The position numbers and the translations under genes are program-made. This document shows positions 9,328 to 22,990 of a stretch of DNA of 64,000 nt, one piece after another; positions within the stretch are counted from its first letter, which is position 1, and each line of letters begins with the position of its first letter. The stretch is from the IMG/VR virus record IMGVR_UViG_3300008267_000022, positions 1 to 64,000 of that record. One strand, written 5' to 3'. The stretch is from a virus. The notes under the pieces are model-generated. The model saw only the letters and a program-made list of their open reading frames with translations, had not been told where the DNA came from and ran no database searches.

Positions 9328-9361
9328 AAATATACGAAAAAACCCTCTTTCGAGGGTTTCC
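9328..9361 (-). promoter_or_regulatory. Promoter with terminator in spacer
   Basis: GGAAA at 9357-9361 and CGTATA at 9331-9336, exactly 20 bases apart, for the gene starting at 9307. The spacer is the terminator hairpin at 9337-9358. Confidence 0.75.
9337..9358 (-). terminator. Terminator nested in a promoter
   Basis: ACCCTC and GAGGGT pair around GAAA on the minus strand, followed by TTTTT. It terminates the gene at 9364-9660. Confidence 0.85.
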
Positions 9362-9363
9362 AT

Positions 9364-9660
9364 TTATCTACTTATTACTGATTCAATTACTTCTGTTCCT
9401 GAGTTAATCATTGCTATAACCCCACCCCACATATTCTCATCTGCTTCCCATTCTATTTCATGTTTAGCATGTTTCATTTGCCAATTTGATACTGCAAATC
9501 CCATTCCATCTAGTTTAAAATCACCATTATCATTTTTTCTAAATCTTAAATGGCCTACATTATCACACATACATGATACTGTTTTGAATATTACCTCTCT
9601 AGCTCCTTCTTTGATGGTTAGTTTAGGTGCGTTTAATCTTAATTCTCTATACTTACTCAT
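9364..9660 (-). CDS. Hypothetical protein, 98 aa
   Basis: Mixed alpha/beta protein with a Cys pair (SCMCDNVGHLRF) that might bind metal; unrecognised family. Bounded by its own promoter and a nested terminator. Confidence 0.75.
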   Translation of the reverse strand: MSKYRELRLNAPKLTIKEGAREVIFKTVSCMCDNVGHLRFRKNDNGDFKLDGMGFAVSNWQMKHAKHEIEWEADENMWGGVIAMINSGTEVIESVISR

Positions 9661-9682
9661 AACTTTTCTTTTTTATTTACTT

Positions 9683-9716
9683 AAATATACGAATTTAATT
9701 TTCATCATCATTTTCC
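9683..9716 (-). promoter_or_regulatory. GGAAA-N20-CGTATA promoter
   Basis: GGAAA at 9712-9716 and CGTATA at 9686-9691 for the gene starting at 9660. The GGAAA lies in the acidic C-terminal codons of the upstream gene. Confidence 0.75.
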
Positions 9717-9934
9717 TCTTCATCATCTTCATCATGCATTCTATCAATGTACTGTTGAATCCCCATGTTGTATGTTCCTGCTGCATCTAACCAACTACGT
9801 AAATGTCCTATAATATAAGCATTAGCATGTCCTTCTAATGAAGTTCCTCTTACTGCATCCCTAATTTTCTGAATTGCTGATTGTAGTTCATCTTTTGCTT
9901 CATCTAGCAAATCTATTCTATCAAATTTATCCAT
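9695..9934 (-). CDS. Hypothetical phage protein, 79 aa
   Basis: Two helices with a central AYIIGHLRSWLDAAGTYNMGIQQY stretch, a pattern I associate with small conserved phage proteins of unknown role, then an acidic Asp/Glu tail. Confidence 0.75.
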   Translation of the reverse strand: MDKFDRIDLLDEAKDELQSAIQKIRDAVRGTSLEGHANAYIIGHLRSWLDAAGTYNMGIQQYIDRMHDEDDEEENDDEN

Positions 9935-9956
9935 AACTTTTCTTTTTTATTTACTT

Positions 9957-9990
9957 AAATATACGAATTCAAATTTCATCAACTTACTCC
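9957..9990 (-). promoter_or_regulatory. GGAGT-N20-CGTATA promoter
   Basis: GGAGT at 9986-9990 and CGTATA at 9960-9965 for the gene starting at 9934. Confidence 0.65.
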
Positions 9991-10059
9991 TTTAGTATAT
10001 ACGTATTTGAGTATGATGGGTGTGGTGATGAAGAGCCAAAGCTATTCTTGTGATGATTA

Positions 10060-10377
10060 TTAACTAATTGTTATGTAATCAATACCAAAAAATTCCTTTA
10101 ATATTGCTGCTTCCTCTTCTTCATAGACAGTATTCCTCATTGCTAATAAAATATCTTTTAATGAACATGCTTTTTCTAATTGTACAATCGCTTCTTCAGT
10201 GTAACGTTCGTTAATTCGAATCGATTCAATTATTTCTTCAATTTCCTCAATTGCATTTTCTTCATTTCTGTTAATGATTATTTTGATATCTTCTCCCATA
10301 TCTACTTTAAAATCATAAATGAATTGTTCTAACATAATAACAATTCTTTCTTTGCCTTCTTTAAAATCTACTTTCAT
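10060..10377 (-). CDS. Hypothetical acidic protein, 105 aa
   Basis: Very rich in Glu and Ile, helical throughout, no recognised motif. Own promoter at 10401-10433. Confidence 0.75.
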   Translation of the reverse strand: MKVDFKEGKERIVIMLEQFIYDFKVDMGEDIKIIINRNEENAIEEIEEIIESIRINERYTEEAIVQLEKACSLKDILLAMRNTVYEEEEAAILKEFFGIDYITIS

Positions 10378-10400
10378 AACTTATCTTTTTAATTTACTTG

Positions 10401-10433
10401 AATATACGACTTTGATTTTATTAAAAATTATCC
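10401..10433 (-). promoter_or_regulatory. GGATA-N20-CGTATA promoter
   Basis: GGATA at 10429-10433 and CGTATA at 10403-10408 for the gene starting at 10377. Confidence 0.7.
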
Positions 10434-10438
10434 TCTGA

Positions 10439-10777
10439 TTACCAATTAACAGGATATTTGGTTAATATTTCTGATGAGTATAAGTGTGAATTATCATTAT
10501 AGCTAACAACATCTTCCCACCAACGAATGCCTACCATTAGTCGGGGCACAGCAAATGAAGCTACATCATCATCATGAACATAAAATAATAAGTCATGTCT
10601 ACCACCTGTACCTTCTACTTCATTATCATCCTCATCTAAATCAGGGTTAGTAATTACTTCCTGTTCAAATTGGATCCTAGCATTAAAATTCTCCTGAAAG
10701 AAATCTGCTAAGTCTTGTGATGTGCTTTCGCCCATTACTGTTCCAGGCCAAACACATAGTTGATTGAATTTGCTCAT
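10439..10777 (-). CDS. Hypothetical protein, 112 aa
   Basis: N-terminal strand-helix (LCVWPGTVMGESTSQDLADFF), an acidic loop, then GGRHDLLFYVHDDDVASFAVPR. Related short proteins occur in T4-like phages, to my memory without known function. Confidence 0.75.
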   Translation of the reverse strand: MSKFNQLCVWPGTVMGESTSQDLADFFQENFNARIQFEQEVITNPDLDEDDNEVEGTGGRHDLLFYVHDDDVASFAVPRLMVGIRWWEDVVSYNDNSHLYSSEILTKYPVNW

Positions 10778-10799
10778 AACTTTTCTTTTTTATTTACTT

Positions 10800-10833
10800 A
10801 AATATACGAATTTAATTTTATTGATTTTATTCC
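10800..10833 (-). promoter_or_regulatory. GGAAT-N20-CGTATA promoter
   Basis: GGAAT at 10829-10833, overlapping the upstream stop (GAG GAA TAA), and CGTATA at 10803-10808, for the gene starting at 10777. Confidence 0.8.
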
Positions 10834-11291
10834 TCTACTTTAAGTGCAAACAGTATTTTTGCTCTTACACGATTACCATCATTTGGGTTTCCTATTACAA
10901 CACCATCAATAATTGAAAATGCATGACGTTTAACTATGATTAGATATTTACCCTTTGAGTATTTCTCTAAAAACATGTTTAGTGTTATTTCAGTGGGTTC
11001 ACCCCCATTCATTTGATGTCTTGCTGAGCCTGGGTATAGTAGATTTTCTTTGGGTATGATGTTGTATTTAATTCCTAGTATATTATCTCTAGTTCTTAGT
11101 TTAATAGCGGTTCCAAATGTACCTTTACGTGGTTGTCTATTAAACTCATCAGCTACAAATTCATGCGCCACATCATATTTTAAATTAAATGTGGAAGCGA
11201 CTGCTCTAACTACACAATCGTTACGTTCACCTTTAGCTGTTACACTTTCATTATAGCCAATAATATGGTCTGCAGAGCAAATACTTTTCAT
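10827..11291 (-). CDS. Putative papain-like cysteine protease
   Basis: 154 residues. An NDCVVRAVAS block at about residues 24-33 provides a Cys at the start of a helix. A KRHAFSIIDG strand near residue 121 provides a His, and VIGNPND about ten residues later provides an Asn/Asp. Cys, His, Asn in this order and spacing fits the papain-like fold of small phage peptidases. Activity is inferred from these residues only; the substrate is unknown. It ends KVEE, overlapping the next promoter. Confidence 0.65.
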   Translation of the reverse strand: MKSICSADHIIGYNESVTAKGERNDCVVRAVASTFNLKYDVAHEFVADEFNRQPRKGTFGTAIKLRTRDNILGIKYNIIPKENLLYPGSARHQMNGGEPTEITLNMFLEKYSKGKYLIIVKRHAFSIIDGVVIGNPNDGNRVRAKILFALKVEE

Positions 11292-11317
11292 AACTTTTAT
11301 TTTTTTAATTATGAATT

Positions 11318-11351
11318 AAACATACGAAAAGCCCTCTTTCGAGAGCTTTCC
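11318..11351 (-). promoter_or_regulatory. Promoter with terminator in spacer
   Basis: GGAAA at 11347-11351 and CGTATG at 11321-11326, 20 bases apart, for the gene starting at 11291. The spacer is a terminator hairpin. Confidence 0.7.
11327..11348 (-). terminator. Terminator nested in a promoter
   Basis: AGCTCTC and GAGGGCT pair on the minus strand (one G-T) around GAAA, followed by TTTT. It ends the gene at 11374-11754. Confidence 0.8.
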
Positions 11352-11373
11352 TTTTTATTATTTTTTGTATTTA

Positions 11374-11754
11374 TTATTCAATTACTTCAATATTAAGTGA
11401 GGAATCAGTAACATCCTCTTCAATGATGTCCTCTTTAACATCTTCAAAACGGCGTAATACTGCATTGATATGATCCATTGCATCATAAACATTGATTTGG
11501 GCATCCTCAAGTTCAATTACATTCCCATAACCAATTGAAAATTCAGCATTTTCCTTATCAACTAAATCACTGCTGTTATAATCTAAACAACGTTCAATTT
11601 CTCCTGATAATTCATCAATTAATTCCTCACTCAATGTTGTTACTGTTTTAACATCATCTAGCTTATTGATGAGTTCAATTACTTTATCAATATCAACCTG
11701 TGATGATAATGCTTTTGCTGTTTCTAGTTGTGCTACTAATTCTGCTTTTTTCAT
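11374..11754 (-). CDS. Hypothetical acidic coiled-coil protein, 126 aa
   Basis: Long helical stretches with heptad patterning and a strongly acidic composition; no family recognised. Confidence 0.75.
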   Translation of the reverse strand: MKKAELVAQLETAKALSSQVDIDKVIELINKLDDVKTVTTLSEELIDELSGEIERCLDYNSSDLVDKENAEFSIGYGNVIELEDAQINVYDAMDHINAVLRRFEDVKEDIIEEDVTDSSLNIEVIE

Positions 11755-11782
11755 AACTTTTATTTTTTTAAATTTATACCTT

Positions 11783-11815
11783 AAATATACGAACTTGATT
11801 TTTAAACTTTATTCC
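11783..11815 (-). promoter_or_regulatory. GGAAT-N19-CGTATA promoter
   Basis: GGAAT at 11811-11815 overlaps the stop of the upstream gene (GAG GAA TAA); CGTATA at 11786-11791; gene start at 11754. Confidence 0.75.
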
Positions 11816-12180
11816 TCTAATTCATCTTTTAAAATTTTAATTGTATTTTGAAGGGTATACAACAACCACACACCATCGTTATTTAAATAATACACATATT
11901 CTTCTCCACTGTTGAAACCATTTTCAAACAAATCTTCAATGTTTAGATAGTCTGTTGAGCACAGATCTTCCCCTCTATCTCTATGATATGCCACTGTATT
12001 TTCAGTTGATTCACCTAGTGATGATATATCACCTAATTCAATTAGTTTTTCTAATTTTTCCTTATCATAGTGGTTGTATAATGTTTTACCCACACCACTA
12101 ACATAACCATCAAAATGACAATAAATTGATTTTACTGTACCTGATTCGGTTTCAATTGCAATTCTACTTCTTGTACTCAT
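11809..12180 (-). CDS. Conserved phage protein, MSTRSRI family
   Basis: 123 residues opening MSTRSRIAIETESGTVKSIY, then CHFDGYVSGVGKTLYNHY and LGDISSLG. This N-terminal signature is widespread in tailed phages and some plasmids. The first half is probably a beta sheet and the C-terminus is helical. No function is established as far as I know. Confidence 0.85.
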   Translation of the reverse strand: MSTRSRIAIETESGTVKSIYCHFDGYVSGVGKTLYNHYDKEKLEKLIELGDISSLGESTENTVAYHRDRGEDLCSTDYLNIEDLFENGFNSGEEYVYYLNNDGVWLLYTLQNTIKILKDELEE

Positions 12181-12207
12181 AACCTTTATTTTTTTAAATT
12201 ATACACT

Positions 12208-12241
12208 AAATATACGAATAATATTCTTGCTAAAGATTTCC
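12208..12241 (-). promoter_or_regulatory. GGAAA-N20-CGTATA promoter
   Basis: GGAAA at 12237-12241 and CGTATA at 12211-12216 for the gene starting at 12180. Confidence 0.75.
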
Positions 12242-12466
12242 TTCTATATACTCTAATACTTCTTGGGATGCTTTACTTCTAAATATACTCTGGTTATCCC
12301 AGTCAAACATTCTATAGAATACCATAGCATTATCTTGAATGTTACTAAACGAATTAATTCGCTTTAACTTTTCATCTACATAACCAAACTGATTGCTATA
12401 TGTGTTCCATATATCAGTTGCTATAGCTTTCATTTCATCAAATACTTCTTGGCTTGGTGTTTCCAT
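12230..12466 (-). CDS. Hypothetical protein, 78 aa
   Basis: A helical protein. Its ATG follows the upstream stop by two bases, so the two genes are coupled. Its tail codons overlap the next promoter. Confidence 0.7.
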   Translation of the reverse strand: METPSQEVFDEMKAIATDIWNTYSNQFGYVDEKLKRINSFSNIQDNAMVFYRMFDWDNQSIFRSKASQEVLEYIEGNL

Positions 12467-12468
12467 AG

Positions 12469-12639
12469 TTATTTCATTCTGTTGATTAAAACTTTAAATA
12501 TACCCTTTTCCTCATAAGTGTTTTTAACTGTTGTTTCAAATAGTCTTTCTGGGTATGAGTAGTAATATCTTTTTATTTTGATTTTTAACTCATCCTGTGT
12601 TTTAGCAGTTAAAGTCACATTCATTCTTTCATCATCCAT
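12469..12639 (-). CDS. Hypothetical basic protein, 56 aa
   Basis: Start at 12637-12639. Begins MDDERMNVTLTAKTQDELKI and has a Lys/Tyr-rich middle (KIKRYYYSYPERLF). First gene of a two-gene unit. Confidence 0.7.
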   Translation of the reverse strand: MDDERMNVTLTAKTQDELKIKIKRYYYSYPERLFETTVKNTYEEKGIFKVLINRMK

Positions 12640-12651
12640 TTTTCATGTTTT

Positions 12652-12683
12652 AATATACGAATTTGTATTTAGTAATTTTTTCC
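12652..12683 (-). promoter_or_regulatory. GGAAA-N19-CGTATA promoter
   Basis: GGAAA at 12679-12683 and CGTATA at 12654-12659 for the gene starting at 12639. The upstream gene's C-terminal codons overlap the GGAAA. Confidence 0.65.
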
Positions 12684-12881
12684 CTTGAAGTAAATTATTG
12701 CTCCTATAATTCCGAAGATAAGCAAACCTAAACATAATGGAATCCAAATTGGAGAAAAAATCCACCACCATGACCAGTACTGTACTGGTCCAACTTCTGC
12801 TAATTTAAGTGTTAGGAAGATAAGGAACAATATTGTTCCTAATCCGATTCCATTACTTGTTGTTTTTGATTCTTTTGACAT
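12669..12881 (-). CDS. Two-span membrane protein, 70 aa
   Basis: Two hydrophobic helices (about residues 12-28 and 44-65) joined by a Trp-rich turn (YWSWWWIFSPIW). A phage inner-membrane protein of unknown role. Co-transcribed with the gene at 12898-13416. Confidence 0.75.
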   Translation of the reverse strand: MSKESKTTSNGIGLGTILFLIFLTLKLAEVGPVQYWSWWWIFSPIWIPLCLGLLIFGIIGAIIYFKGKNY

Positions 12882-12897
12882 GTTTTATTTTGTTTTA

Positions 12898-13416
12898 TTA
12901 TTCAAATACTATTGTATCTCCTTTTATTTTGTATTGAAATGATCTACCAATTTCATATTGGCGATATTGAGTTGATTTGAGTACTCTTCTAATTTCATCT
13001 TTTGCTCTAGTTAAAGGGCGCCTTGTATCTTCTTTTTTATCTCCTTCTTGTAGGACATGTTTGCTAACTTTCATCCCATAAACAAACAACGTACCTGATT
13101 CATTATGAATTTTTAATCCTTTACCTACATGAGTATAAGCATTAACAACTCCTTCTGATCTGTTTTTAGATGGGGCAATAAAACTATTAAGTAAATCAAC
13201 TCTAGCTTCTTCTAATAAATCAATATCTAAATTACTATTCAATGTATTTACATCTAACTGTAATAAAAATTCAATATCTTTTTCTTTTGCGTTTTGATAA
13301 TCAACACCCACATTAAATACTGTACGATGTTTTTCATTTTGTTGATTTACATAAGTAACAGATACAAATGATACTCCTGTAATGCCTTCTAATTTTTTAG
13401 CTAATTCATCTTTCAT
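12898..13416 (-). CDS. Hypothetical protein, 172 aa
   Basis: Alpha/beta protein without recognised motif; several beta strands near the C-terminus (LFVYGMKVSKHVL). It begins a two-gene unit with its own promoter. Confidence 0.75.
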   Translation of the reverse strand: MKDELAKKLEGITGVSFVSVTYVNQQNEKHRTVFNVGVDYQNAKEKDIEFLLQLDVNTLNSNLDIDLLEEARVDLLNSFIAPSKNRSEGVVNAYTHVGKGLKIHNESGTLFVYGMKVSKHVLQEGDKKEDTRRPLTRAKDEIRRVLKSTQYRQYEIGRSFQYKIKGDTIVFE

Positions 13417-13430
13417 AACTTTTTTATTTT

Positions 13431-13464
13431 AAATATACGAACTTTATTTTGATAACTCTATTCC
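13431..13464 (-). promoter_or_regulatory. GGAAT-N20-CGTATA promoter
   Basis: GGAAT at 13460-13464 lies in the coding end of the 34-residue gene; CGTATA at 13434-13439; gene start at 13416. Confidence 0.75.
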
Positions 13465-13548
13465 TAATTCTAAAAGAAATAAAGTCATATAGATCTCAAA
13501 TCGAGCTATCTCAATTTCCTCTACTTGTTGTTTAGCTGTTTTTCTCAT
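13444..13548 (-). CDS. Small helical peptide, 34 aa
   Basis: MRKTAKQQVEEIEIARFEIY then a hydrophobic end. Its start overlaps the end of the gene at 13532-14155 by 17 bases in another frame, and its tail carries the next promoter's GGAAT. Confidence 0.5.
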   Translation of the reverse strand: MRKTAKQQVEEIEIARFEIYMTLFLLELGIELSK

Positions 13549-13834
13549 CCTCTTCATGCATAAAGAAATCAATAATTACCTCATCATCATTTTCTAAATT
13601 AGTATCTTCGATCAAATCAAATATTTCTTTTAATGTTGAAGCATTTTTAATTGCTACTACTCTATCAATATAATCTTTTTCATATAAATTAAATGACTCT
13701 ACCTCTCTCCCTATTGAATCCATACTAAGCATTGAATGAATGCACATTAATGCTCCTTCTTCAGCCATTTCAAATTGATGATCGAAATAGTGGATTAAAG
13801 CTGTTTTTCCTTTTTCAAAATTAAATGTTTTCAT
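13532..13834 (-). CDS. Probable independently started protein, 100 aa
   Basis: The in-frame ATG at 13832-13834 follows its own GGAAC-N20-CGTATA promoter and A-rich leader. The product (MKTFNFEKGKTALIHYFDHQ...) is a helical, acidic protein. It is likely made alone as well as in the fused form. Confidence 0.6.
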   Translation of the reverse strand: MKTFNFEKGKTALIHYFDHQFEMAEEGALMCIHSMLSMDSIGREVESFNLYEKDYIDRVVAIKNASTLKEIFDLIEDTNLENDDEVIIDFFMHEEDEKNS

Positions 13835-14155
13835 ATCTTTTTTTTCTTTTAATATACGACTTTCTTTTTTAAATGATTGTTCCTCTGACTTAGCAAACAT
13901 ATGTTCATAGTACTCGCCATCATTTTGCCCATTATCATCCCCATCTCGAACCCATTTTATCTCGATAAGCTCACCCCCATCACGATCAGTATAATATTGA
14001 CCTGTAAATACTGCTTTTGCTCCTTTTTTAGCTGAGTATACACCTTGTGGGTCAAATTCTAATATGTCTCCTTTTTTAAATTTCATGTTTTGTTTTGGTT
14101 GTGGAAAATCCCCATCTGATAGTTGGGGGTCATCCCATGATGAATAATTACTCAT
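13532..14155 (-). CDS. Two fused small proteins, 207 aa
   Basis: One uninterrupted frame, but it reads through a complete promoter (13851-13883). Residues 1-90 (ending HMFAKSEEQ) look like a small beta-rich protein starting MSNYSSWDDPQ. Residues 108-207 begin MKTFNFEKGK right after a normal leader. At the point where other genes here read GAG GAA TAA, this one reads GAG GAA CAA, so loss of the stop probably joined two genes and turned the intergenic promoter into a linker. Confidence 0.7.
   Translation of the reverse strand: MSNYSSWDDPQLSDGDFPQPKQNMKFKKGDILEFDPQGVYSAKKGAKAVFTGQYYTDRDGGELIEIKWVRDGDDNGQNDGEYYEHMFAKSEEQSFKKESRILKEKKDMKTFNFEKGKTALIHYFDHQFEMAEEGALMCIHSMLSMDSIGREVESFNLYEKDYIDRVVAIKNASTLKEIFDLIEDTNLENDDEVIIDFFMHEEDEKNS
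13851..13883 (-). promoter_or_regulatory. Promoter translated inside a fused gene
   Basis: GGAAC at 13879-13883, 20-base spacer, CGTATA at 13853-13858, followed by an A-rich leader and ATG at 13834; the entire element is open in frame with the upstream gene. Confidence 0.75.
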
Positions 14156-14157
14156 TG

Positions 14158-14301
14158 TTAAAATTCAATTTCAAAGTTTAATTTTCTGCATCTCGCTTCA
14201 ATAGCTTTTTTACTGCTATTTTTAATTCCTAACCATTCCGCTACTTGCATTTGGTTATCAAACCATCTTGAATTACTAATACTTGTTTTTAATCGTATCA
14301 T
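14158..14301 (-). CDS. Small basic protein, 47 aa
   Basis: Start at 14299-14301. Residues 13-40 (WFDNQMQVAEWLGIKNSSKK...) look like a small helix-turn-helix. It follows the gene at 14318-14596 without its own promoter. Confidence 0.65.
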   Translation of the reverse strand: MIRLKTSISNSRWFDNQMQVAEWLGIKNSSKKAIEARCRKLNFEIEF

Positions 14302-14317
14302 AACTTTTCTTTTTTAA

Positions 14318-14596
14318 TTACCAATGGTTTCCGTTATTTCTTGATGGGTTTTGTGCAAATGCTTCTTTACACATCATTTCTACATGATTATCTTTAAACG
14401 CACCCCAAGGAACAAACCCTAAATATGTTCCATAAGTGTACCCATATGTATTAACTTTAACAATTTGTTTTAGTATATCCATTTCCTCATCTGTTTTAGC
14501 TATTTGTTCAGCTGAGATTGTACGTAATTGACCATATCTGTCACAACCGCTTGTTTTGTAATGGTTAATTAATTTTTTTTCAATTTCATGTCTCAT
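14318..14596 (-). CDS. Hypothetical protein, 92 aa
   Basis: A helical N-terminus, then a Gly/Tyr-rich region (TYGYTYGTYLGFVPWGAF). No family recognised. Own promoter at 14622-14655. Confidence 0.7.
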   Translation of the reverse strand: MRHEIEKKLINHYKTSGCDRYGQLRTISAEQIAKTDEEMDILKQIVKVNTYGYTYGTYLGFVPWGAFKDNHVEMMCKEAFAQNPSRNNGNHW

Positions 14597-14621
14597 AACC
14601 TTTATTTTTTAATTATACCTG

Positions 14622-14655
14622 AAATATACGAAAGCTCTCTTAATTGAGAGCTTCC
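14622..14655 (-). promoter_or_regulatory. Promoter with terminator in spacer
   Basis: GGAAG at 14651-14655 and CGTATA at 14625-14630, 20 bases apart, for the gene starting at 14596; the spacer is a perfect terminator stem. Confidence 0.75.
14631..14653 (-). terminator. Terminator nested in a promoter
   Basis: AAGCTCTC and GAGAGCTT form a perfect stem around AATTAA on the minus strand, followed by T. It ends the gene at 14640-15413 and overlaps its stop codon. Confidence 0.8.
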
Positions 14656-15413
14656 TTTTTAACTTGTTTTGAAAACTGTTCTAACAATTCCTCTGGACTT
14701 AAATTATCATATTCAACATCTTTTTTCTTAAACATAACATCTCTGTCATTGTATGAATCAATTCGAAATTCAATGAAACTACCTGATTCAAATTCAACCT
14801 TAACTGTATCAAACGAACCATAATACTTTGCATAGTCACGTCCACTTGTAACTGTAGCTGAAGGGTACAATGTTTTATATTTTTCAAGTGTAGCATTTAG
14901 CAATGCAGTTGTTTTGTTATATTCTTCAAATCGACGTTTTTCCTTTTCATTATGCTCCAACAATTTAGTTAATAATGTACTTGGTTTAACATAACGAGAT
15001 TGTTCTTGAATACTCCATGATTGTATTTTGTCTCGTTGAACATCAAAACCAAACACACCATCTTTTAATTCTTTAGTTGTTGTATCAAAACGTTTACCTA
15101 ACAAACTAACCCCACCTGTACAGAACTTTGCTGTAACTTCAGTTTCAAATTGAGTTTGATTGTAACTATAACCTAATGTTACTTTACGTGTGTCAGTGAA
15201 TGATTTGAAATCGTTTTTGAAATGAACATCTTTAACAAATCCTGCATCAATGAGCATCTTTTCAATTCGTTGACGTTCATTTTCATGGGATGTGGTGCTT
15301 TTTTCTTGGTTAGCAATGTATGTATCAACTTGTTTTTGTTGGTCAGGTGTTAACAACACACCTGCAAATAAATCCAATTGATTTGGATCCTTAATTTCTT
15401 CTAAATTTTCCAT
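14640..15413 (-). CDS. Hypothetical protein, 257 aa
   Basis: One of the larger proteins of the small-gene region. Residues 30-60 and 150-190 are helical with charged heptads; between and after them lie predicted strands. No catalytic motif or family recognised. It is bounded by its own promoter and a nested terminator. Confidence 0.8.
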   Translation of the reverse strand: MENLEEIKDPNQLDLFAGVLLTPDQQKQVDTYIANQEKSTTSHENERQRIEKMLIDAGFVKDVHFKNDFKSFTDTRKVTLGYSYNQTQFETEVTAKFCTGGVSLLGKRFDTTTKELKDGVFGFDVQRDKIQSWSIQEQSRYVKPSTLLTKLLEHNEKEKRRFEEYNKTTALLNATLEKYKTLYPSATVTSGRDYAKYYGSFDTVKVEFESGSFIEFRIDSYNDRDVMFKKKDVEYDNLSPEELLEQFSKQVKKEALN

Positions 15414-15436
15414 AACCTTTATTTTTTAATTTATTT

Positions 15437-15470
15437 AAATATACGAAATTGATTTTAAAATAGAGTTTCC
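15437..15470 (-). promoter_or_regulatory. GGAAA-N20-CGTATA promoter
   Basis: GGAAA at 15466-15470 and CGTATA at 15440-15445 for the gene starting at 15413. Confidence 0.75.
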
Positions 15471-16568: not shown

Positions 16569-16577
16569 TTTTTTATA

Positions 16578-16898: not shown

Positions 16899-17127
16899 AA
16901 TTTGACGTAACTACTAATCGCTCAGGTAAATACTCTATTTGGCCTGCGCATTGGTTATATTTTGGATAATTTTTATTTTCTAACAACTCAAAATAACATT
17001 TACCATCTTGAGTATAAAGCAATTTACCTCTAAAAGTGGAAAATAGGTTAGTAACTAACACTTTTCCAATCATGTCTTTTAGATTAGCGTTTACTTCAAT
17101 CCTCGGTGTTATCTTGTTTCTGCCCAT
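16885..17127 (-). CDS. Hypothetical beta-rich protein, 80 aa
   Basis: Alternating strands, no motif recognised. The chosen ATG overlaps the upstream gene by 32 bases; a start at residue 19 would shorten the overlap. Confidence 0.65.
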   Translation of the reverse strand: MGRNKITPRIEVNANLKDMIGKVLVTNLFSTFRGKLLYTQDGKCYFELLENKNYPKYNQCAGQIEYLPERLVVTSNFENE

Positions 17128-17455
17128 TGTTTAATTTATCTAAATCTTCTTTTAATCGTTCTATAAATGATTCTTCACCATCATCTCCACTCATATACCA
17201 ATCAATTCTATGAGCATATATTTGGGCAATGCGAAGTACTTTTACTGCTTCTTTAAATGCTTCAATAATTTCATCTTGATGCTTATAATGAAATTTATCT
17301 TCAGGGTATTTTTCGTACCAATCTGGGTCTCTCCATCGTTCTTCATCTAGCTCACGTTTGGTTTTTTCTCGGCCATTATCTCTAATGCATTGCTCAATTT
17401 CATCAGCAATATAACCAATTTTATATTGGTCGTAATTAAAAGCTCCTCCTGACAT
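17096..17455 (-). CDS. Conserved phage protein, MSGGAFNY family
   Basis: 119 residues beginning MSGGAFNYDQYKIGYIADEI. This opening is shared by a family of small helical phage and bacterial proteins with no known function. Charged and Trp/Tyr-rich. First gene of a four-gene unit. Confidence 0.8.
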   Translation of the reverse strand: MSGGAFNYDQYKIGYIADEIEQCIRDNGREKTKRELDEERWRDPDWYEKYPEDKFHYKHQDEIIEAFKEAVKVLRIAQIYAHRIDWYMSGDDGEESFIERLKEDLDKLNNGQKQDNTED

Positions 17456-17472
17456 TGTTTTATTTTTTGTGG

Positions 17473-18054
17473 TTAATATACGAATTCTATTTTATCTTTT
17501 AATACCCTTTTCAAATTAGCTTTAGCTTTAAATAAATTTGATTTAGATGTACCTTCACTGATGCCTAATTCATTTGCAATTTCAGCATGAGAATATTCTT
17601 CAATAACATACATGTTAAATACTATTCTATAAGCAGGAGATAATTTAGCTACTGCTTCTAACATTAACTTAGTAACCCTTTGTTGATCACCTTGCAATTC
17701 AAAATCATATATCTCATCATGATCAGTTGTTTTAAACATACTATCCTGGTCACTTAATGTTATTTTTCGTTTTCGTTTTCGTTCTCTAAGCTTATCAATT
17801 GCTAGATTAACAATGATTCTTTTCATCCAGAACCAAATGTCAACTGTAAAGTTATATGTTGATAGTTTATTAAATATTTTAATAAACCCTTCTTGGAGTA
17901 CTTCATTAGCATCATCTTCATTCCCCATATACCGATAACTAAGAGACATTAATCGACCAGCATAGGTATCAAATAGGATTTTTTGGGATTTTCTATCATT
18001 GTTGATGCACCCTTTAACGATATCTTCTATTTTATTTTTAACTTGGTAATCCAT
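17473..18054 (-). CDS. ECF-type RNA polymerase sigma factor
   Basis: 193 residues, the usual size for this group. Region 2 spans about residues 26-95 (LSYRYMGNEDDANEVLQEGF, then WFWMKRIIVNLAIDKLRERK), with core-binding and -10 recognition elements. A short acidic linker leads to region 4 (about 135-185), with the helix-turn-helix EYSHAEIANELGISEGTSKS that reads the -35 box. Regions 1 and 3 are absent, as expected for ECF sigmas. No anti-sigma gene is adjacent. Its promoter (18072-18105) carries the same two-box motif as its neighbours, suggesting autoregulation. It should bind host core polymerase and redirect it to phage promoters. Confidence 0.92.
   Translation of the reverse strand: MDYQVKNKIEDIVKGCINNDRKSQKILFDTYAGRLMSLSYRYMGNEDDANEVLQEGFIKIFNKLSTYNFTVDIWFWMKRIIVNLAIDKLRERKRKRKITLSDQDSMFKTTDHDEIYDFELQGDQQRVTKLMLEAVAKLSPAYRIVFNMYVIEEYSHAEIANELGISEGTSKSNLFKAKANLKRVLKDKIEFVY
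17475..17507 (-). promoter_or_regulatory. GGGTA-N20-CGTATA promoter in sigma gene end
   Basis: GGGTA at 17503-17507 and CGTATA at 17477-17482, 20 bases apart, for the gene starting at 17455. The CGTATATTAA box encodes the last residues and stop of the sigma factor. Confidence 0.65.
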
Positions 18055-18071
18055 AACTCTTATTTTTACTT

Positions 18072-18105
18072 AAATATACAACTTTATCTTAATTAAAAAA
18101 TATCC
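18072..18105 (-). promoter_or_regulatory. GGATA-N20-TGTATA promoter of the sigma gene
   Basis: GGATA at 18101-18105 and TGTATA at 18075-18080, 20 bases apart, just upstream of the sigma factor start at 18054 and just after the terminator at 18112-18147. Confidence 0.7.
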
Positions 18106-18111
18106 TTTGAT

Positions 18112-18147
18112 AAAAAACCTGCCGCACGCTTGCAGTCGCACGGCAGG
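18112..18147 (-). terminator. Strong intrinsic terminator
   Basis: On the minus strand CCTGCCGTGCG pairs with CGTGCGGCAGG (two G-T pairs) around an 8-base loop, followed by TTTTTT. It ends the transcript carrying DUF932 and the tRNA-like element. Confidence 0.92.
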
Positions 18148-18173
18148 AAAAGAAACGGTTATGAAGCGTTTTG

Positions 18174-18245
18174 TAGTCAGGGTGGGATTCGAACCCACGG
18201 GTACCTATCACTTTTCGATTTATTAAATCTTATAGTAACCTGACC
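18174..18245 (-). tRNA. Aberrant tRNA-like element, 72 nt
   Basis: The acceptor strands GGTCAGG and CCTGACT pair fully (one G-T), with discriminator A. The T-arm is canonical (GTGGG, TTCGAAT loop, CCCAC). The 41 bases between acceptor and T-arm form no normal D-arm and no 7-base anticodon loop; instead CTAT...ATAG encloses GATTT-AAT-AAATC. It may be a degenerate tRNA or an RNA keeping only the tRNA top half. A terminator follows. Confidence 0.45.
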
Positions 18246-18311
18246 TACCCCGAATTTTCTAGTAGCGGCACTTTTACGCGGCCGTCGGTTCTACTTGCGA
18301 CGATTTTTTGC

Positions 18312-19115
18312 TTAGGCAGCTGTATATTCAGCTGCCATTGCAAATAATTTTTGGTTAATTTCCATATCTTGTTTGAAATTCTTTACTTTACGTGCTTTTC
18401 TAGATTTAGCTCCTGACATGTATGTAAAGTCTCCATCCAAAATTTTCTCTTGGATTACATTAAACACTGACCATAAGTCGCTTCCTTTATCTTCTGGTCG
18501 AGTTGGTTCTAGTAATTTGTCTAAATCGAAACTCATTCCTTCTACTTGATCTTCAGTAAATCTTGTTGTGAGTGCTTTCTTAGCTAGTTCTTTTGCTTGA
18601 TCTTCTGATAATTGGATTTGTTTCATTTTATTCATTGACTCAACTGTCAGTGGTAGTTGTTCAACCATGGCACGAACTTGTTCTTGTAGTTCCTCAAATG
18701 TGTAACCCATATGACGAATTTTTACATTTTCAAATTCCTGTGTTGAAATAACTAGTCCATTCTCACAAACCATTCTAAATAAACCAGCGGTGAATGTAAA
18801 TGCATTCTTCCCATCATTTGAATTAGTTAATAGGATTTGTGGGAATACTGTATCACCATCTGATCCATTGATTACTACATCAGGGTTTCTAAACACGACT
18901 AAATGTTTTTGGTAACCTTGGCCTTTACGGGCTTTAACTTGTTTGGCATCAACTACTCCCCAACCTAATTGTTCCATATCCTCAATCACTCTGTGAGTTG
19001 GGATGTGAATAAATTTGCTTGATACAGTCGGTGCTGCACTTGTTGTGAAAATTGAGTTAGCGCGTTGCTTAACTTCGTCCATTTTCAAAAATCCATCTTT
19101 GCTTAAATCTAACAT
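18312..19115 (-). CDS. DUF932-family protein
   Basis: 267 residues. The centre has the hallmark FRMVCENGLVIS (about residues 118-129) with a preceding TFTAGL strand, and a C-terminal FNVIQEKI helix, typical of DUF932 / phage-plasmid proteins (TIGR03299-like). The family is common on phages and plasmids; its function is not established. A paralogue is at 20879-21652. Own promoter; the transcript probably continues into the tRNA-like element. Confidence 0.85.
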   Translation of the reverse strand: MLDLSKDGFLKMDEVKQRANSIFTTSAAPTVSSKFIHIPTHRVIEDMEQLGWGVVDAKQVKARKGQGYQKHLVVFRNPDVVINGSDGDTVFPQILLTNSNDGKNAFTFTAGLFRMVCENGLVISTQEFENVKIRHMGYTFEELQEQVRAMVEQLPLTVESMNKMKQIQLSEDQAKELAKKALTTRFTEDQVEGMSFDLDKLLEPTRPEDKGSDLWSVFNVIQEKILDGDFTYMSGAKSRKARKVKNFKQDMEINQKLFAMAAEYTAA

Positions 19116-19143
19116 AACCTTTACTTTTTTTAAATTAATACTT

Positions 19144-19177
19144 AAATATACAAACTTTATTTTTAAAACTTTTTTCC
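19144..19177 (-). promoter_or_regulatory. GGAAA-N20-TGTATA promoter
   Basis: GGAAA at 19173-19177 and TGTATA at 19147-19152 for the DUF932 gene starting at 19115. Confidence 0.75.
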
Positions 19178-19180
19178 CTT

Positions 19181-19327
19181 TTAAAAATTACCCATTGACA
19201 TAAACATTTTATACAGCATATGCTCTTCATAAGCTAAACATTCATCATATGAACCTTGAAATAAAACAGAGTTATCTGATGAGTTTATTACTTGGTAAGT
19301 ATTGTTTATTAAATGAACTACTTCCAT
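19181..19327 (-). CDS. Hypothetical protein, 48 aa
   Basis: Start at 19325-19327. Product begins MEVVHLINNTYQVINSSDNS and ends in a Met-rich helix. Unrecognised. Confidence 0.7.
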   Translation of the reverse strand: MEVVHLINNTYQVINSSDNSVLFQGSYDECLAYEEHMLYKMFMSMGNF

Positions 19328-19354
19328 AACTTTATTTTTTTAAATTTATACCTT

Positions 19355-19388
19355 AAATATACAAACAATATTTTAATCAAAAAATCCC
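19355..19388 (-). promoter_or_regulatory. GGGAT-N20-TGTATA promoter
   Basis: GGGAT at 19384-19388 and TGTATA at 19358-19363 for the gene starting at 19327. Confidence 0.65.
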
Positions 19389-19392
19389 CTCT

Positions 19393-19743
19393 CTACTTCC
19401 AGAGAAATTGAATTAAAAGTATACCTAGAGCCAATGTTAAGCATGTTAGTGTTTTTAATGTAAGTACTTCTCCAAATACACTCCAACTAAATATAGTAAA
19501 TACTATTGTGCCGATGCTAAATCCAATTAGGCGAGATGGCCATATTTCTCCCTCAAATGCTGTTACCATGTGTTTTACAGAAAACATAAACATCATTGAA
19601 ATAGGAATACCCATCAATACTACCACCCAATAATGATTTTTAAACCAATCAAATTTAAGTGAGCCTTGTAATTGGAAGAATGTAGCTACTTGGGCTAAAA
19701 ACCCAAAAAACATTCCTAATATAAGTGATCCTATGTTATTCAT
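19393..19743 (-). CDS. Four-span membrane protein, 116 aa
   Basis: Four hydrophobic helices at about residues 5-23, 37-57, 72-90 and 97-115, the size and layout of EmrE/SMR-like or DMT-type small membrane proteins. The Glu of SMR transporters in helix 1 is missing, so transport is doubtful. It overlaps the upstream gene by ATGA. Confidence 0.75.
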   Translation of the reverse strand: MNNIGSLILGMFFGFLAQVATFFQLQGSLKFDWFKNHYWVVVLMGIPISMMFMFSVKHMVTAFEGEIWPSRLIGFSIGTIVFTIFSWSVFGEVLTLKTLTCLTLALGILLIQFLWK

Positions 19744-20087
19744 TTATAAAATTTACTATCATCAATTTCTACCTCAAAATCATCATCAACTGATTCCCAT
19801 TCATCTTTAATTAATTCAATAACATCTTCATCTTCATCTCTATATTCAGGCAATAAACCTAATTTCTCTACCATCCACCAAGCTCTGTCTTTATATGTGT
19901 TGATTGAAATTCCATCCAAATATTTAATTCCTCTTTCTGTTAATATTGACAAATGAGCAATTAAATCACAAGTTAAATAGTCTAATTCTTCTAAGTCAGG
20001 GTTTTTTTCTTTTGCTTTTGCTTTAATAGTTTCCCACTTATCCCAAATGATGCTTTTTTCTATTCTAAATGATTTCTTTTTCTTCAT
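19740..20087 (-). CDS. Hypothetical acidic protein, 115 aa
   Basis: A basic N-terminus and a strongly acidic C-terminus (EDEDVIELIKDEWESVDDDFE). No motif recognised. Part of the unit read from 20844-20875. Confidence 0.75.
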   Translation of the reverse strand: MKKKKSFRIEKSIIWDKWETIKAKAKEKNPDLEELDYLTCDLIAHLSILTERGIKYLDGISINTYKDRAWWMVEKLGLLPEYRDEDEDVIELIKDEWESVDDDFEVEIDDSKFYK

Positions 20088-20092
20088 AACCT

Positions 20093-20341
20093 TTATTTTA
20101 CTATTCTATTCGTTAATAAATTAATTAGTGCCTGCACTTCACCAAATTCATAAAATCTTATATATGGATCTGTATTGAAGAATTCAACATACCAATTACC
20201 GTCTTTTATTTCTTCGTTTGTTGGTGTTATAAATGTCAGTCCATCTACAATATCTAAAACATAATAGTAAGACTCGTCTTCATCGTGTTCTCTAATTTCT
20301 TCACTTCTTAGTCCTAATAAGATAATTTCTCTTTCTGTCAT
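20093..20341 (-). CDS. Hypothetical acidic protein, 82 aa
   Basis: Alpha/beta, acidic, aromatic; family unrecognised. It abuts the lipoprotein gene upstream. Confidence 0.7.
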   Translation of the reverse strand: MTEREIILLGLRSEEIREHDEDESYYYVLDIVDGLTFITPTNEEIKDGNWYVEFFNTDPYIRFYEFGEVQALINLLTNRIVK

Positions 20342-20342
20342 T

Positions 20343-20579
20343 TTACTTGGTTTTTACAATGCTATATGTTCCCTTCTTAATTACATATGGAGGGTTAATT
20401 CTTACTTTACTACTATCACTATTAAAATAATATACAGTATCCCCATCAAAACTTATTGTATCGGTATACCAAATAGCTGGGTGTGGTCCTTCTTTGGTTT
20501 TTGTTGTTCCTTCAATTTTGTACAAATTTTCTTTGTTTGTACATGATGCTAATAATAGAATTAATGCTAATTTTTTCAT
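20343..20579 (-). CDS. Small lipoprotein, 78 aa
   Basis: A signal peptide MKKLALILLLASC ends in a lipobox with Cys at residue 13, so the mature protein should be lipid-anchored. The mature part is a small beta domain. Phage lipoproteins at the envelope often block superinfection; that role is inference only. Confidence 0.75.
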   Translation of the reverse strand: MKKLALILLLASCTNKENLYKIEGTTKTKEGPHPAIWYTDTISFDGDTVYYFNSDSSKVRINPPYVIKKGTYSIVKTK

Positions 20580-20818
20580 GTGTTTTCTTCTTTTAAATAG
20601 TCTCTAATAATTGCTGCTAATTCATATAATTCTTCACCAACTGCATGATGCATCATATCTTCTATTAGTTTATTTATGTCCCCCTCAAACTCGTCATCTA
20701 ATAAACTTTGTAGTATGATTTTATCTTTTTGTGATAATTTACTACCTTTTATTACGGGATGCATATTCATATTACTAGCGATTATTAAATTCATTATCCT
20801 ACTTTCGTTTTCATCCAT
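20576..20818 (-). CDS. Hypothetical helical protein, 80 aa
   Basis: Acidic, helical, no motif. First gene of a five-gene unit behind a promoter-terminator composite. Confidence 0.7.
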   Translation of the reverse strand: MDENESRIMNLIIASNMNMHPVIKGSKLSQKDKIILQSLLDDEFEGDINKLIEDMMHHAVGEELYELAAIIRDYLKEENT

Positions 20819-20843
20819 AACCTTTATTTTTTATTTATACTAT

Positions 20844-20875
20844 AATATACGAAAACCCTCTTACGAGGGTTTTCC
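20844..20875 (-). promoter_or_regulatory. Promoter with terminator in spacer
   Basis: GGAAA at 20871-20875 and CGTATA at 20846-20851, 19 bases apart, for the gene starting at 20818; spacer occupied by a terminator. Confidence 0.75.
20852..20873 (-). terminator. Terminator nested in a promoter
   Basis: AAAACCCTC and GAGGGTTTT pair perfectly around GTAA. It ends the DUF932 gene at 20879-21652. Confidence 0.85.
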
Positions 20876-20878
20876 TTT

Positions 20879-21652
20879 CTAAATTGCTATTGAGTATTGA
20901 TTAACTAGAGCTGATAGTTGCTTATTTAATCTAATATCTTCATTTAAGTTGCGAACATCAGCAGTTAGATTTTCTTGTATCCTGTTGAATACAGTCCATA
21001 AATCGTTTCCTTCATCTTCAATTCGATTAACTGAAAGTAGATCATTTATATCAATATCATCTAAATTATTGTATCGTAATTTGGCTGCTTCGTAAGCTAA
21101 TTTTCGCATATCTGTTAGGGATAAATTTGTATGTTTTAATTTTTCAAATTCATTTACTATTGTTGATGTTTTTCTAGATACATTTGAAATGTATTGATCT
21201 AAATCATAGTAATTAACTCTGATATGTTTAATTATTTCGCTTTCTGCTGCTTGTTCATACGCAATTGCTCCATTACTACATACTTGGCGATACACTCCTA
21301 AATCTAATTGTAACGGTTTGCTTCCATTACAACTATTTGTAATAGTTAATGATGCTAATGCTTCATTTCTTCCTTTACTATCCTTAATAGCAAAATCAGG
21401 ATGTTGCATTTGAACATAATTATTAACAATTTTACGACTATTACCCCGTTGTTCATTTACCCCAGCTATTTGCCATCCTTCATCTTGTAGTTTTGTAACT
21501 ACATCTATTGTTGGAATGTAGAATTCTTTTGTTTTAATTCTTTGAATGTTTTTAATGTTGTTTACATCCAATGTATTAGCAAAAGCAATTGCTTTGTTTA
21601 AATCATTGTTTACTGGGATGAATTTAGTTAATTTTGAATTTCTTGTTCTCAT
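20879..21652 (-). CDS. DUF932-family protein, second copy
   Basis: 257 residues. It shares with the protein at 18312-19115 the order: basic N-terminus, TKLQDEGWQ-type block, LGVYRQVCSNGAIAYEQ core (about residues 136-152) and a C-terminal DLWTVFNRIQENL helix. The divergence suggests an old duplication. Function not established. Confidence 0.85.
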   Translation of the reverse strand: MRTRNSKLTKFIPVNNDLNKAIAFANTLDVNNIKNIQRIKTKEFYIPTIDVVTKLQDEGWQIAGVNEQRGNSRKIVNNYVQMQHPDFAIKDSKGRNEALASLTITNSCNGSKPLQLDLGVYRQVCSNGAIAYEQAAESEIIKHIRVNYYDLDQYISNVSRKTSTIVNEFEKLKHTNLSLTDMRKLAYEAAKLRYNNLDDIDINDLLSVNRIEDEGNDLWTVFNRIQENLTADVRNLNEDIRLNKQLSALVNQYSIAI

Positions 21653-21663
21653 GTTTTTTGTTT

Positions 21664-21783
21664 TTAATTATACGTTGGTTTAATATTTCCTTTCTTATCT
21701 ACAGTATATCCTGTAGGTTTTTTTAGATTATTCGCTTTGTTGTAGCGACCTTTTTTAGTTGATTTTCCTCCTGAACAGCTCAT
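21664..21783 (-). CDS. Small basic protein, 39 aa
   Basis: MSCSGGKSTKKGRYNKANNL...: Lys/Asn/Gly-rich, probably disordered, perhaps nucleic-acid binding. Similar short GGK-K proteins occur in other phages. Confidence 0.65.
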   Translation of the reverse strand: MSCSGGKSTKKGRYNKANNLKKPTGYTVDKKGNIKPTYN

Positions 21784-21801
21784 AATTTTATTTTTGATTT
21801 G

Positions 21802-21833
21802 AATATACGAAAGAGAGATTGCTCTCTCTATCC
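21802..21833 (-). promoter_or_regulatory. Promoter with terminator in spacer
   Basis: GGATA at 21829-21833 and CGTATA at 21804-21809, 19 bases apart, for the gene starting at 21783; the spacer forms an AGAGAG/CTCTCT hairpin. Confidence 0.65.
21810..21829 (-). terminator. Terminator nested in a promoter
   Basis: AGAGAG and CTCTCT pair around AGCAAT on the minus strand, followed by TTT. It ends the RecA-like gene. Confidence 0.7.
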
Positions 21834-21836
21834 TTT

Positions 21837-22640
21837 TTATTCTTCTTGATTAAATGCATAATGAACCCCATCATTGTATATTGAGAAATATATTTTAAAA
21901 TCCTTATCGCAATCCCGATTTTTCTCAAAATGCAATGTTCGCTCTAAACCATCTTTACTACGCTCAACTTTACAGAATGCTTCCATCATATGTTTTAATC
22001 TTTGGGATCCTGCAAATTCATCGCTTTTAGTTACTTGTTGAATATTGATAAATGAAGTATAATATCCTTCTGAATTTTTACCTTTTTTAACTTCATCTTG
22101 TAGCTTTAAAAACCATGATTCAGCTTGCTTAGCGGTGCCCCCATTTTGATCCCTATACATGTTTAGTATCTCAGCAACGGAGTCAACTCCAATAACATCA
22201 TATCCTAAACCAAATACATGTTCAATTGTTTCCTTAACATTATCCATATGATCTTTTAAAAATAATGTTTGGATACAACCAAACGAAGGCATTCTTTTAC
22301 AATACTTGTAATGTCCTATTTGATCCATTTCTCCTTGAATTAACAAGCATTTTAATCCTTGCATTGTAAATTTAGATAACATATCTAATACTAATGTTGA
22401 CTTACCTGAACCTGGGCCTCCTGCAATCATCATGCTTGTACCTGGCATTAGTCCTCCTTCAGTAGATAATATAATATCTATTTCTGTGTTGGTTCTAAAT
22501 GGGGTAAATAATGACTCATTGAAATGTAATTCATTACCTCTAAATAATTTAATTACTTCAGGGTTGAATTGTGTTTCTTCAACTTGTTTTTTAGGACGTC
22601 CTCTACGTTCTTCTTTCATTTCTCTTTTTTCGATTTTCAT
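21837..22640 (-). CDS. RecA/RadA-like ATPase with AT-hook
   Basis: 267 residues. An AT-hook-like RGRPKK sits at about residues 13-18. The Walker A is GGPGSGKST near residue 74, and a Walker B-like strand DVIGVDSVAEIL lies near 148. A C-terminal NIQQVTKSDEFAGSQRLKHM stretch fits loop L2 and the following helix of RecA-superfamily ATPases. The size resembles RadA/DnaB-type cores without extra domains. Likely roles are strand exchange or helicase loading during phage replication; which one is undecided. Own promoter and nested terminator. Confidence 0.85.
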   Translation of the reverse strand: MKIEKREMKEERRGRPKKQVEETQFNPEVIKLFRGNELHFNESLFTPFRTNTEIDIILSTEGGLMPGTSMMIAGGPGSGKSTLVLDMLSKFTMQGLKCLLIQGEMDQIGHYKYCKRMPSFGCIQTLFLKDHMDNVKETIEHVFGLGYDVIGVDSVAEILNMYRDQNGGTAKQAESWFLKLQDEVKKGKNSEGYYTSFINIQQVTKSDEFAGSQRLKHMMEAFCKVERSKDGLERTLHFEKNRDCDKDFKIYFSIYNDGVHYAFNQEE

Positions 22641-22667
22641 AACCTTTATTTTTTTAATTTATACTTG

Positions 22668-22700
22668 AAATATACGAACTTAAATTTTAGAAACTTGTCC
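22668..22700 (-). promoter_or_regulatory. GGACA-N19-CGTATA promoter
   Basis: GGACA at 22696-22700 and CGTATA at 22671-22676 for the RecA-like gene starting at 22640. Confidence 0.65.
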
Positions 22701-22703
22701 TTT

Positions 22704-22928
22704 TTAAAAGTATTTTTGGTACAAATAAATACCTCCAATAACATAAGGAGCTAATCCTAATAAAATGCCTAACCAGAATAAACCAGTAATTGCTTCTACT
22801 ATTCGATAAATAATAGTAAACGGAATGAACAAAATACCAAATATTAGATTGAAAAATATATTCCCAATCTCAATTTCTTCAGTACGGCTAACCGTTCTAT
22901 AAATGCGATTTTTGTTGTAATAATCCAT
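22704..22928 (-). CDS. Two-span membrane protein, 74 aa
   Basis: I use the ATG at 22926-22928 (MDYYNKNRIYRTVSR), which follows the standard leader. Two long hydrophobic helices (about residues 25-45 and 50-70) follow a polar N-terminus. Confidence 0.75.
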   Translation of the reverse strand: MDYYNKNRIYRTVSRTEEIEIGNIFFNLIFGILFIPFTIIYRIVEAITGLFWLGILLGLAPYVIGGIYLYQKYF

Positions 22929-22956
22929 AACCTTTATTTTTTTAAATTTATACCTT

Positions 22957-22990
22957 AAATATACAAAAAAACCCCTTATAAAAGGGGTCC
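22957..22990 (-). promoter_or_regulatory. Promoter with terminator in spacer
   Basis: GGACC at 22986-22990 and TGTATA at 22960-22965, 20 bases apart, for the gene starting at 22928. Confidence 0.65.
22966..22988 (-). terminator. Terminator nested in a promoter
   Basis: ACCCCTT and AAGGGGT pair around a TTAT-type loop, followed by TTTTT. It ends the gene at 22994-23569. Confidence 0.85.

What the first reader, a model, noticed from the sequence alone, without database searches (positions are those of the whole stretch)
9328..22990. Intrinsic terminators packed exactly into the promoter spacer
At 9328-9361, 11318-11351, 14622-14655, 20844-20875, 21802-21833 and 22957-22990 the spacer between the GGAN box and CGTATA is a terminator hairpin with its U-run. 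The same 32-34 bases thus end one transcript and start the next, and spacing is kept at 19-20. I know of no described class of such composite elements. The hairpin may also block or reset the promoter when polymerase reads through, making the promoter sensitive to upstream transcription.
Basis: seen in the sequence. Interest (0 to 1): 0.9.

Follow-up and report, generated by a model that had tools for sequence, protein, structure and literature searches.

The report
Terminator hairpins built into phage promoters
In a family of viruses that probably infect Flavobacterium-like bacteria, the DNA signal that starts one gene often also holds, in its middle, the RNA hairpin that appears to end the gene before it; the same space-saving trick is already named in T4-like phages (PeSL elements), so this is a new and well-conserved version rather than a new principle.

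Summary
All six sites lie on the minus strand; each has a 7-13-bp stem between a GGA box and CGTATA/CGTATG/TGTATA (RNA fold -11.9 to -17.0 kcal/mol). Spacing is 20-21 bases after GGAN, not 19-20, and only two of six sites have a real U-run.

IMG/VR contigs with the same promoter show it is a family trait. In contigs found without reference to hairpins, 30 of 249 promoters carry a spacer stem, against 0.7 when arms are swapped. Stem sequence changes freely while pairing and position are kept; the promoter's own TWAA element sits in the loop. Hairpin presence follows the upstream gene (49% vs 16% base rate), not the downstream gene (20%). That fits a terminator for the previous transcript packed into the next promoter.

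[quoted passage not shown] As claimed for PeSLs, promoter copies here also bound gene-cassette gains and losses (53% of junctions vs 12%). New variant of a known kind; termination itself is inferred, not shown.

The parts
9328..9361 (-). Composite 1: GGA at 9361, stem AAACCCTC(GAAA)GAGGGTTT, T-run, CGTATATT (C at 9336)
   Evidence: -13.6 kcal/mol; the upstream ORF 9364-9660 ends 2 bases before GGA
11318..11351 (-). Composite 2: stem AAAGCTCTC(GAAA)GAGGGCTTT with one G-U pair, CGTATG (C at 11326)
   Evidence: -16.3 kcal/mol; upstream ORF 11374-11754; the orthologous junctions in L159 and L212 have different paired stems
14622..14655 (-). Composite 3: stem AAGCTCTC(AATTAA)GAGAGCTT; the stop codon of the upstream ORF 14640-15413 lies in the loop
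   Evidence: -15.7 kcal/mol
20844..20875 (-). Composite 4: stem AAAACCCTC(GTAA)GAGGGTTTT, CGTATATT (C at 20851)
   Evidence: -17.0 kcal/mol; orthologous junctions L154 AAGAGCTCT(TTCG)AGAGCTCTT and L213 AACCCTC(AAAA)GAGGGTT
21802..21833 (-). Composite 5: stem AGAGAGA(GCAA)TCTCTCT, CGTATATT (C at 21809)
   Evidence: -11.9 kcal/mol; orthologous junction in L211 AGGAGGA(GCAA)TCCTCCT
22957..22990 (-). Composite 6: GGA, stem ACCCCTT(TTAT)AAGGGGT, T-run, TGTATATT
   Evidence: (-16.2 kcal/mol)
3893..23626 (-). Promoter-dense region: 38 GGA-N21/22-[C/T]GTAT[A/G]TT promoters, most before small genes; 6 carry hairpins
   Evidence: consensus
18118..18147 (-). Stand-alone terminator CCTGCCGTGCG...CGTGCGGCAGG TTTTTT, just upstream of the promoter at 18080-18105; similar ones stand 36-42 bases before a promoter in relatives
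   Evidence: (-20.2 kcal/mol)
17473..18054 (-). Sigma factor gene (sigma-70 regions 2 and 4, ECF-like); possible but unproven reader of these promoters
   Evidence: only one relative locus (L206, 34% identity) has it among those held

Best explanation
These are composite punctuation marks between co-directional genes. A phage promoter (GGAA, then TTCGTATATT about 20 bases on, with a conserved TWAA about 12 bases before the C) leaves most spacer letters free. At roughly one promoter in eight those free letters form the two arms of an RNA hairpin, with TWAA in the loop and the promoter's own AA and TTT as the foot of the stem and the start of the U-rich tail. RNA polymerase arriving from the previous gene makes the hairpin and stops or pauses at UUUCGUAUAUU; a fresh polymerase starts a little further on. 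Shown: anatomy, pairing beyond chance, pairing kept through sequence change, link to the upstream gene. Inferred: that termination happens, its efficiency, the exact start site, and which factor reads the promoter. The repeated promoters also mark where gene cassettes come and go.
For: Pairing beyond chance in promoters not chosen for hairpins: 30/249 vs 0.67; 71/546 vs 2.2 in the larger set. Fixed geometry: 38 of the 71 in one register, 22 in another; AATTAA or GNRA loops that hold the promoter's TWAA. RNA-level sign: single mismatches in stems are G-T 10, A-C 0, where the permuted set gives 40 to 20; GNRA loops appear only when read in the promoter's direction. Stem changes with pairing kept at orthologous junctions: 44 pairs, 11 with both hairpins, 6 with one, 27 with none (permutation mean 0.8 for both). 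Hairpin presence follows the upstream gene: partner has one in 49% (base 16%; none of 2000 permutations reached it), downstream gene 20% (p=0.64), restricted to sites whose stop codon lies before the element. Hairpins fall at gene ends: of 66 with an upstream ORF, nearly all have the stop at or before GGA or in the loop. Positions -3 to -1 are T in all 71 hairpin sites, 44% at -3 elsewhere. Of terminator-like stems in eight promoter-dense stretches, 26 lie in spacers and 9 with a U-tract elsewhere.
Against: No transcript ends have been mapped. The U-tract is interrupted by CG at most sites; C-to-T variants that would mend it are not richer in hairpins (8/45 vs 116/688). In E. coli a terminator a few bases after a gene is almost silenced by the trailing ribosome (PMC4824070), and here 18 of 66 have the stop codon inside the loop. 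Seven of eight promoters lack a hairpin, so it is not needed for initiation. T at -3 is partly implied by requiring a stem. The covariation counts are on sequences already chosen for pairing, so they illustrate rather than prove.
Confidence: 0.82

Rival explanations
1. The hairpin shapes or protects the 3' end of the upstream mRNA (barrier to 3' exonucleases, or an RNase site) after termination by Rho or by collision with the next initiating polymerase; it is not itself the terminator.
For: Explains the tie to the upstream gene, RNA-level pairing and the weak U-tracts.
Against: Two of the six window sites have full U-runs; most terminator-like stems of the region sit here and few stand elsewhere. 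Transcript ends would still need a separate signal, and none was seen.
Confidence: 0.12
2. The inverted repeat acts as DNA: an operator for a dimeric protein, or a cruciform or single-strand hairpin promoter of the N4 virion-polymerase type.
For: The arms lie at fixed positions relative to the promoter boxes.
Against: Stem sequences differ from site to site; G-T but no A-C mismatches; GNRA loops; presence does not follow the downstream gene; most promoters lack it.
Confidence: 0.04
3. The elements are mainly recombination sites for cassette shuffling, and the hairpin is incidental.
For: Junctions of clean cassette gains or losses carry a promoter in 168 of 319 cases vs 12% at random, with a median overlap of 39 bases.
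Against: Hairpin-free promoters are the majority, so junctions need no hairpin; recombination does not explain compensatory change at orthologous junctions. Promoters lie between genes, where breakpoints are expected anyway.
Confidence: 0.02

Closest known systems
PeSL elements (promoter-early stem-loops) of T4-like phages: Arbiol et al. 2010 and Comeau et al. 2014, Genome Biol Evol; titles read in reference lists, full texts not held
   Same: Small repeated promoter-plus-stem-loop cassettes between small variable genes; titled composite promoter-terminator motifs that mediate modular shuffling. In RB49 I find 6 of 38 TTGAC/T promoters with the hairpin exactly between -35 and -10.
   Different: RB49's promoter is sigma-70 TTGACA/TATAAT; here it is GGAA-N22-CGTATATT, in a lineage related to Flavobacterium phage immuto. 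Here the promoter has an extra element held in the loop, and stop codons may lie there.
Promoters of Flavobacterium phage immuto (Immutovirus, cultured)
   Same: Six of 24 GTTG-N20-TAT[A/C]TTTAG promoters overlap a stem of -12.5 kcal/mol or better.
   Different: The upstream box is GTTG, and the stem often swallows or spans that box; register is not fixed. The GGAA-N22-CGTATATT promoter itself is absent.
HGTV-1 motif (haloarchaeal tailed virus), likened to PeSLs in PMC3950731
   Same: TATA-box-like region with an inverted repeat before most left-hand genes.
   Different: Archaeal promoter; sequence not examined here.
ECF sigma promoters (GGAAC ... CGT)
   Same: GGAA and CGT boxes; the window encodes one ECF-like sigma factor.
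   Different: From general knowledge their spacer is 16-17 after GGAAC; here it is about 3-4 bases longer, and the sigma gene is not shared by most relatives.

Membership tests
PeSL | Promoter and stem-loop fused in one short repeated cassette between genes | tested here: met
PeSL | Stem-loop packed between the two promoter boxes, as found in RB49 | tested here: met
   RB49; window family
PeSL | Sigma-70-type early promoter (TTGACA/TATAAT) | tested here: not met
   Consensus is GGAA-N22-CGTATATT; the timing of expression is not testable
PeSL | Stem-loop terminates transcription | not testable with these tools
   Indirect only: follows the upstream gene, RNA-level pairing
PeSL | Recombination between copies shuffles gene modules | tested here: inconclusive
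   Junctions enriched at promoters, 53% vs 12%, but promoters are intergenic and pairs of contigs are not independent
PeSL | Carried by a T4-like myovirus | tested here: inconclusive
   DNA polymerase matches T4-like phages at 25-31%; relative G005 has portal, terminase and gp23-type capsid proteins 54-63% identical to immuto; not shown to be Straboviridae
Canonical intrinsic terminator | GC-rich stem followed by a run of U | tested here: inconclusive
   Stems yes; full U-run in 2 of 6 window sites
Bacteroidota primary-sigma promoter (TTTG / TAnnTTTG, PMC2483708 and PMC7366714) | -33 TTTG and -7 TAnnTTTG | tested here: not met
   The downstream box TATATTTA resembles TAnnTTTG, but GGAA replaces TTTG; a second class, TTTGGA-N16-CGTATA, fits better

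The most novel reading that the evidence does not exclude
Fusion of terminator and promoter in one ~33-bp element has arisen independently on at least three different promoter types (sigma-70 in RB49, GTTG/TATATTTAG in immuto, GGAA/CGTATATT here), and in the present family the promoter itself has evolved a hairpin-compatible layout: free arms, a TWAA element fitted to the loop, and boxes (GGAA, TTTC) that pair with each other, with the stop codon allowed in the loop so that translation can tune read-through into the next gene.
Probability: 0.35. Interest if true: 0.68.

Novelty: new variant of a known kind. Interest (0 to 1): 0.52.

Why it matters
It shows that the PeSL design is not a quirk of T4-like coliphages: a distant phage family with a different promoter uses it dozens of times, with dozens of different stems, which gives a natural mutagenesis set for testing how one short DNA both ends and starts transcription. 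It could give a compact insulated part for Bacteroidota genetics, and it is a warning that terminator and promoter finders that forbid overlap will miss such sites.

Tried and rejected
Sigma-factor query in IMG/VR found no relatives. A second promoter pattern was mis-spaced and nearly useless. Immuto was searched for the same promoter and lacks it; it has its own composite version. The ECF-like sigma factor as universal reader was dropped: not conserved. A gp55-like protein of about 250 aa is conserved in relatives but is more likely a late sigma factor. The idea that C-to-T changes repair the U-tract at hairpin sites was tested and failed. The finding that junctions lie at promoters was kept as suggestive only, since promoters are intergenic. 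Full texts of the PeSL papers could not be read; their geometry was checked directly in RB49 instead. The G-numbered contigs carry no host names, so the host is inferred from immuto.

Full report
What was checked. The six sites were read directly. Each lies on the minus strand with GGA, 21 or 22 bases, then CGTATA (CGTATG at 11326, TGTATA at 22965). Each spacer folds as a stem with a 4- or 6-base loop, -11.9 to -17.0 kcal/mol, z -3.1 to -5.4; two hairpin-free promoters of the same window fold at 0 and -1.4. All 38 promoters of this type in the window are on the minus strand, between about 3.9 and 23.6 kb, most before small genes. The U-run claim holds fully only at 9336 and 22965.

What it belongs to. 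The window is part of an 83.7-kb virus record. Its glycosyltransferase is 55% identical to that of Flavobacterium phage immuto, its DNA polymerase is of the T4-like type, and its close relative G005 (polymerase 90% identical) carries capsid, portal and terminase proteins 54-63% identical to immuto's. Immuto lacks the promoter. A pattern scan of IMG/VR and a scan of the records found showed many contigs with the same promoter, and a second scan found more. In them GGA-to-CGTATA spacing peaks sharply at 22, with a smaller class at 21 and a separate class TTTGGA-N16-CGTATA. The consensus is AAGGAAT ... TWAA ... TTCGTATATTTA.

Is the hairpin more than chance? In contigs found by a pattern that says nothing about hairpins, 30 of 249 non-redundant promoters have a stem of at least 6 bp with at least 3 GC; swapping the 3' half between promoters gives 0.67 on average and never more than 4. 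In contigs found through a hairpin-like seed, with the seeds removed, the numbers are 24 of 309 against 0.65. With one mismatch allowed, 71 of 546 against 2.2.

Anatomy. Two geometries prevail. Class I: GG<AAGNNNNN(AATTAA)NNNNNCTT>T CGTATATT. Class II: GGAAT<AGNNNNN(GNAA)NNNNNCT>TT CGTATATT. In both the promoter's conserved TWAA, about 12 bases before the C, is in the loop, and the arms use the bases that the promoter leaves free. Folding also pairs the promoter boxes GGAA and TTTC with each other at several sites.

RNA or DNA? Single mismatches inside stems were allowed without preference; ten are G-T and none A-C, while permuted sequences give 40 to 20. Loops are often GNRA, which is a stable RNA loop only in the promoter's direction (general knowledge). 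Both point to an RNA made by polymerase coming from upstream.

Whose hairpin is it? Where both flanking genes are homologous in two contigs, hairpins are shared far above chance (11 of 44 pairs have both, 0.8 expected), with different stems: window 20851 AAAACCCTC(GTAA)GAGGGTTTT, L154 AAGAGCTCT(TTCG)AGAGCTCTT, L213 AACCCTC(AAAA)GAGGGTT. When only the upstream gene is shared, a hairpin's partner has one in 46%, and 49% when the stop codon lies before the element (base rates 13% and 16%); when only the downstream gene is shared, 10% and 20%. None of the 32 upstream-only pairs has identical spacers. This is what a terminator of the upstream transcript predicts, and not what a control element of the downstream gene predicts.

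Gene context. Stop codons of the upstream gene end just before GGA, or at the TAA in the loop (18 of 66 hairpin sites); the next ATG is usually 20-50 bases after the C. In E. coli a terminator this close to a stop codon is nearly silenced by the trailing ribosome (PMC4824070), so these hairpins may act mainly when ribosomes lag, or read-through may depend on translation. That part is inference.

Shuffling. Among 319 clean gene-cassette gains or losses between relatives, the junction carries a promoter in 168 (53%), against 12% for random places, and the matching flanks overlap there by a median of 39 bases. This suggests recombination between promoter copies; it is weakened by the fact that promoters lie between genes and that contig pairs are not independent.

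Comparison with the known. [quoted passage not shown] The papers themselves are not held. From memory, their abstract calls the stem-loops effective terminators; I could not check this. I therefore read RB49: 6 of 38 TTGAC/T promoters have a hairpin exactly between the boxes, e.g. TTGAC<GCGGGGA(GAAA)TCCCCGC>TATAAT with the leading G of the stem being the base after TTGAC (the arm-swap control there is weak, mean 2.2, maximum 5, because those arms resemble each other). That these RB49 sites are the published PeSLs is my inference from the name and the phage. Immuto shows a third version on GTTG-N20-TATATTTAG (6 of 24 at -12 kcal/mol or better; control mean 1.7, maximum 5). The design is thus known; the promoter, the lineage, the TWAA-in-loop layout and the evidence from covariation and upstream-gene linkage are additions.

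Limits. Termination is not shown. Contigs are fragments, hosts are inferred, and relatives are not statistically independent; permutations of labels or arms keep composition but not all of kinship. Covariation counts on chosen hairpins are illustrative.

Noticed in passing
L135-L138 (G001), L142-L144 (G003), L139-L141 (G002): A second promoter class, TTTGGA-N16-CGTATATT, whose TTTG and TATATTTA fit the Bacteroidota primary-sigma consensus; it shares the downstream box with the GGAA-N22 class.
   Followed up: partly
L010:16811-26244 (immuto 66.8-76.2 kb): Immuto's promoters GTTG-N20-TAT[A/C]TTTAG; six overlap strong hairpins that include or span the upstream box, some with UUCG loops.
   Followed up: partly
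window:17473-18054: ECF-like sigma factor with sigma regions 2 and 4, nearly absent from relatives held here.
   Followed up: partly
window:18118-18147; also L159, L154, L171, L209: Strong stand-alone terminator (CCTGCC...GGCAGG, then T5-T6) kept 36-42 bases upstream of a promoter in several relatives.
   Followed up: no
L151:8220-8954, L162, L153 and about 40 other loci: Conserved protein of about 250 aa with a weak match to sigma region 2; possibly a gp55-like late sigma factor.
   Followed up: partly
all GGAA-N22 promoters: Stop codons of upstream genes sit at preferred promoter positions (just before GGA, TAA at -21 to -19, TAA at -12 to -10), as if the promoter letters double as stop codons.
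   Followed up: partly
window:18312-19115 and 20879-21652: Two DUF932 genes; the second lies between composite elements 4 and 5.
   Followed up: no
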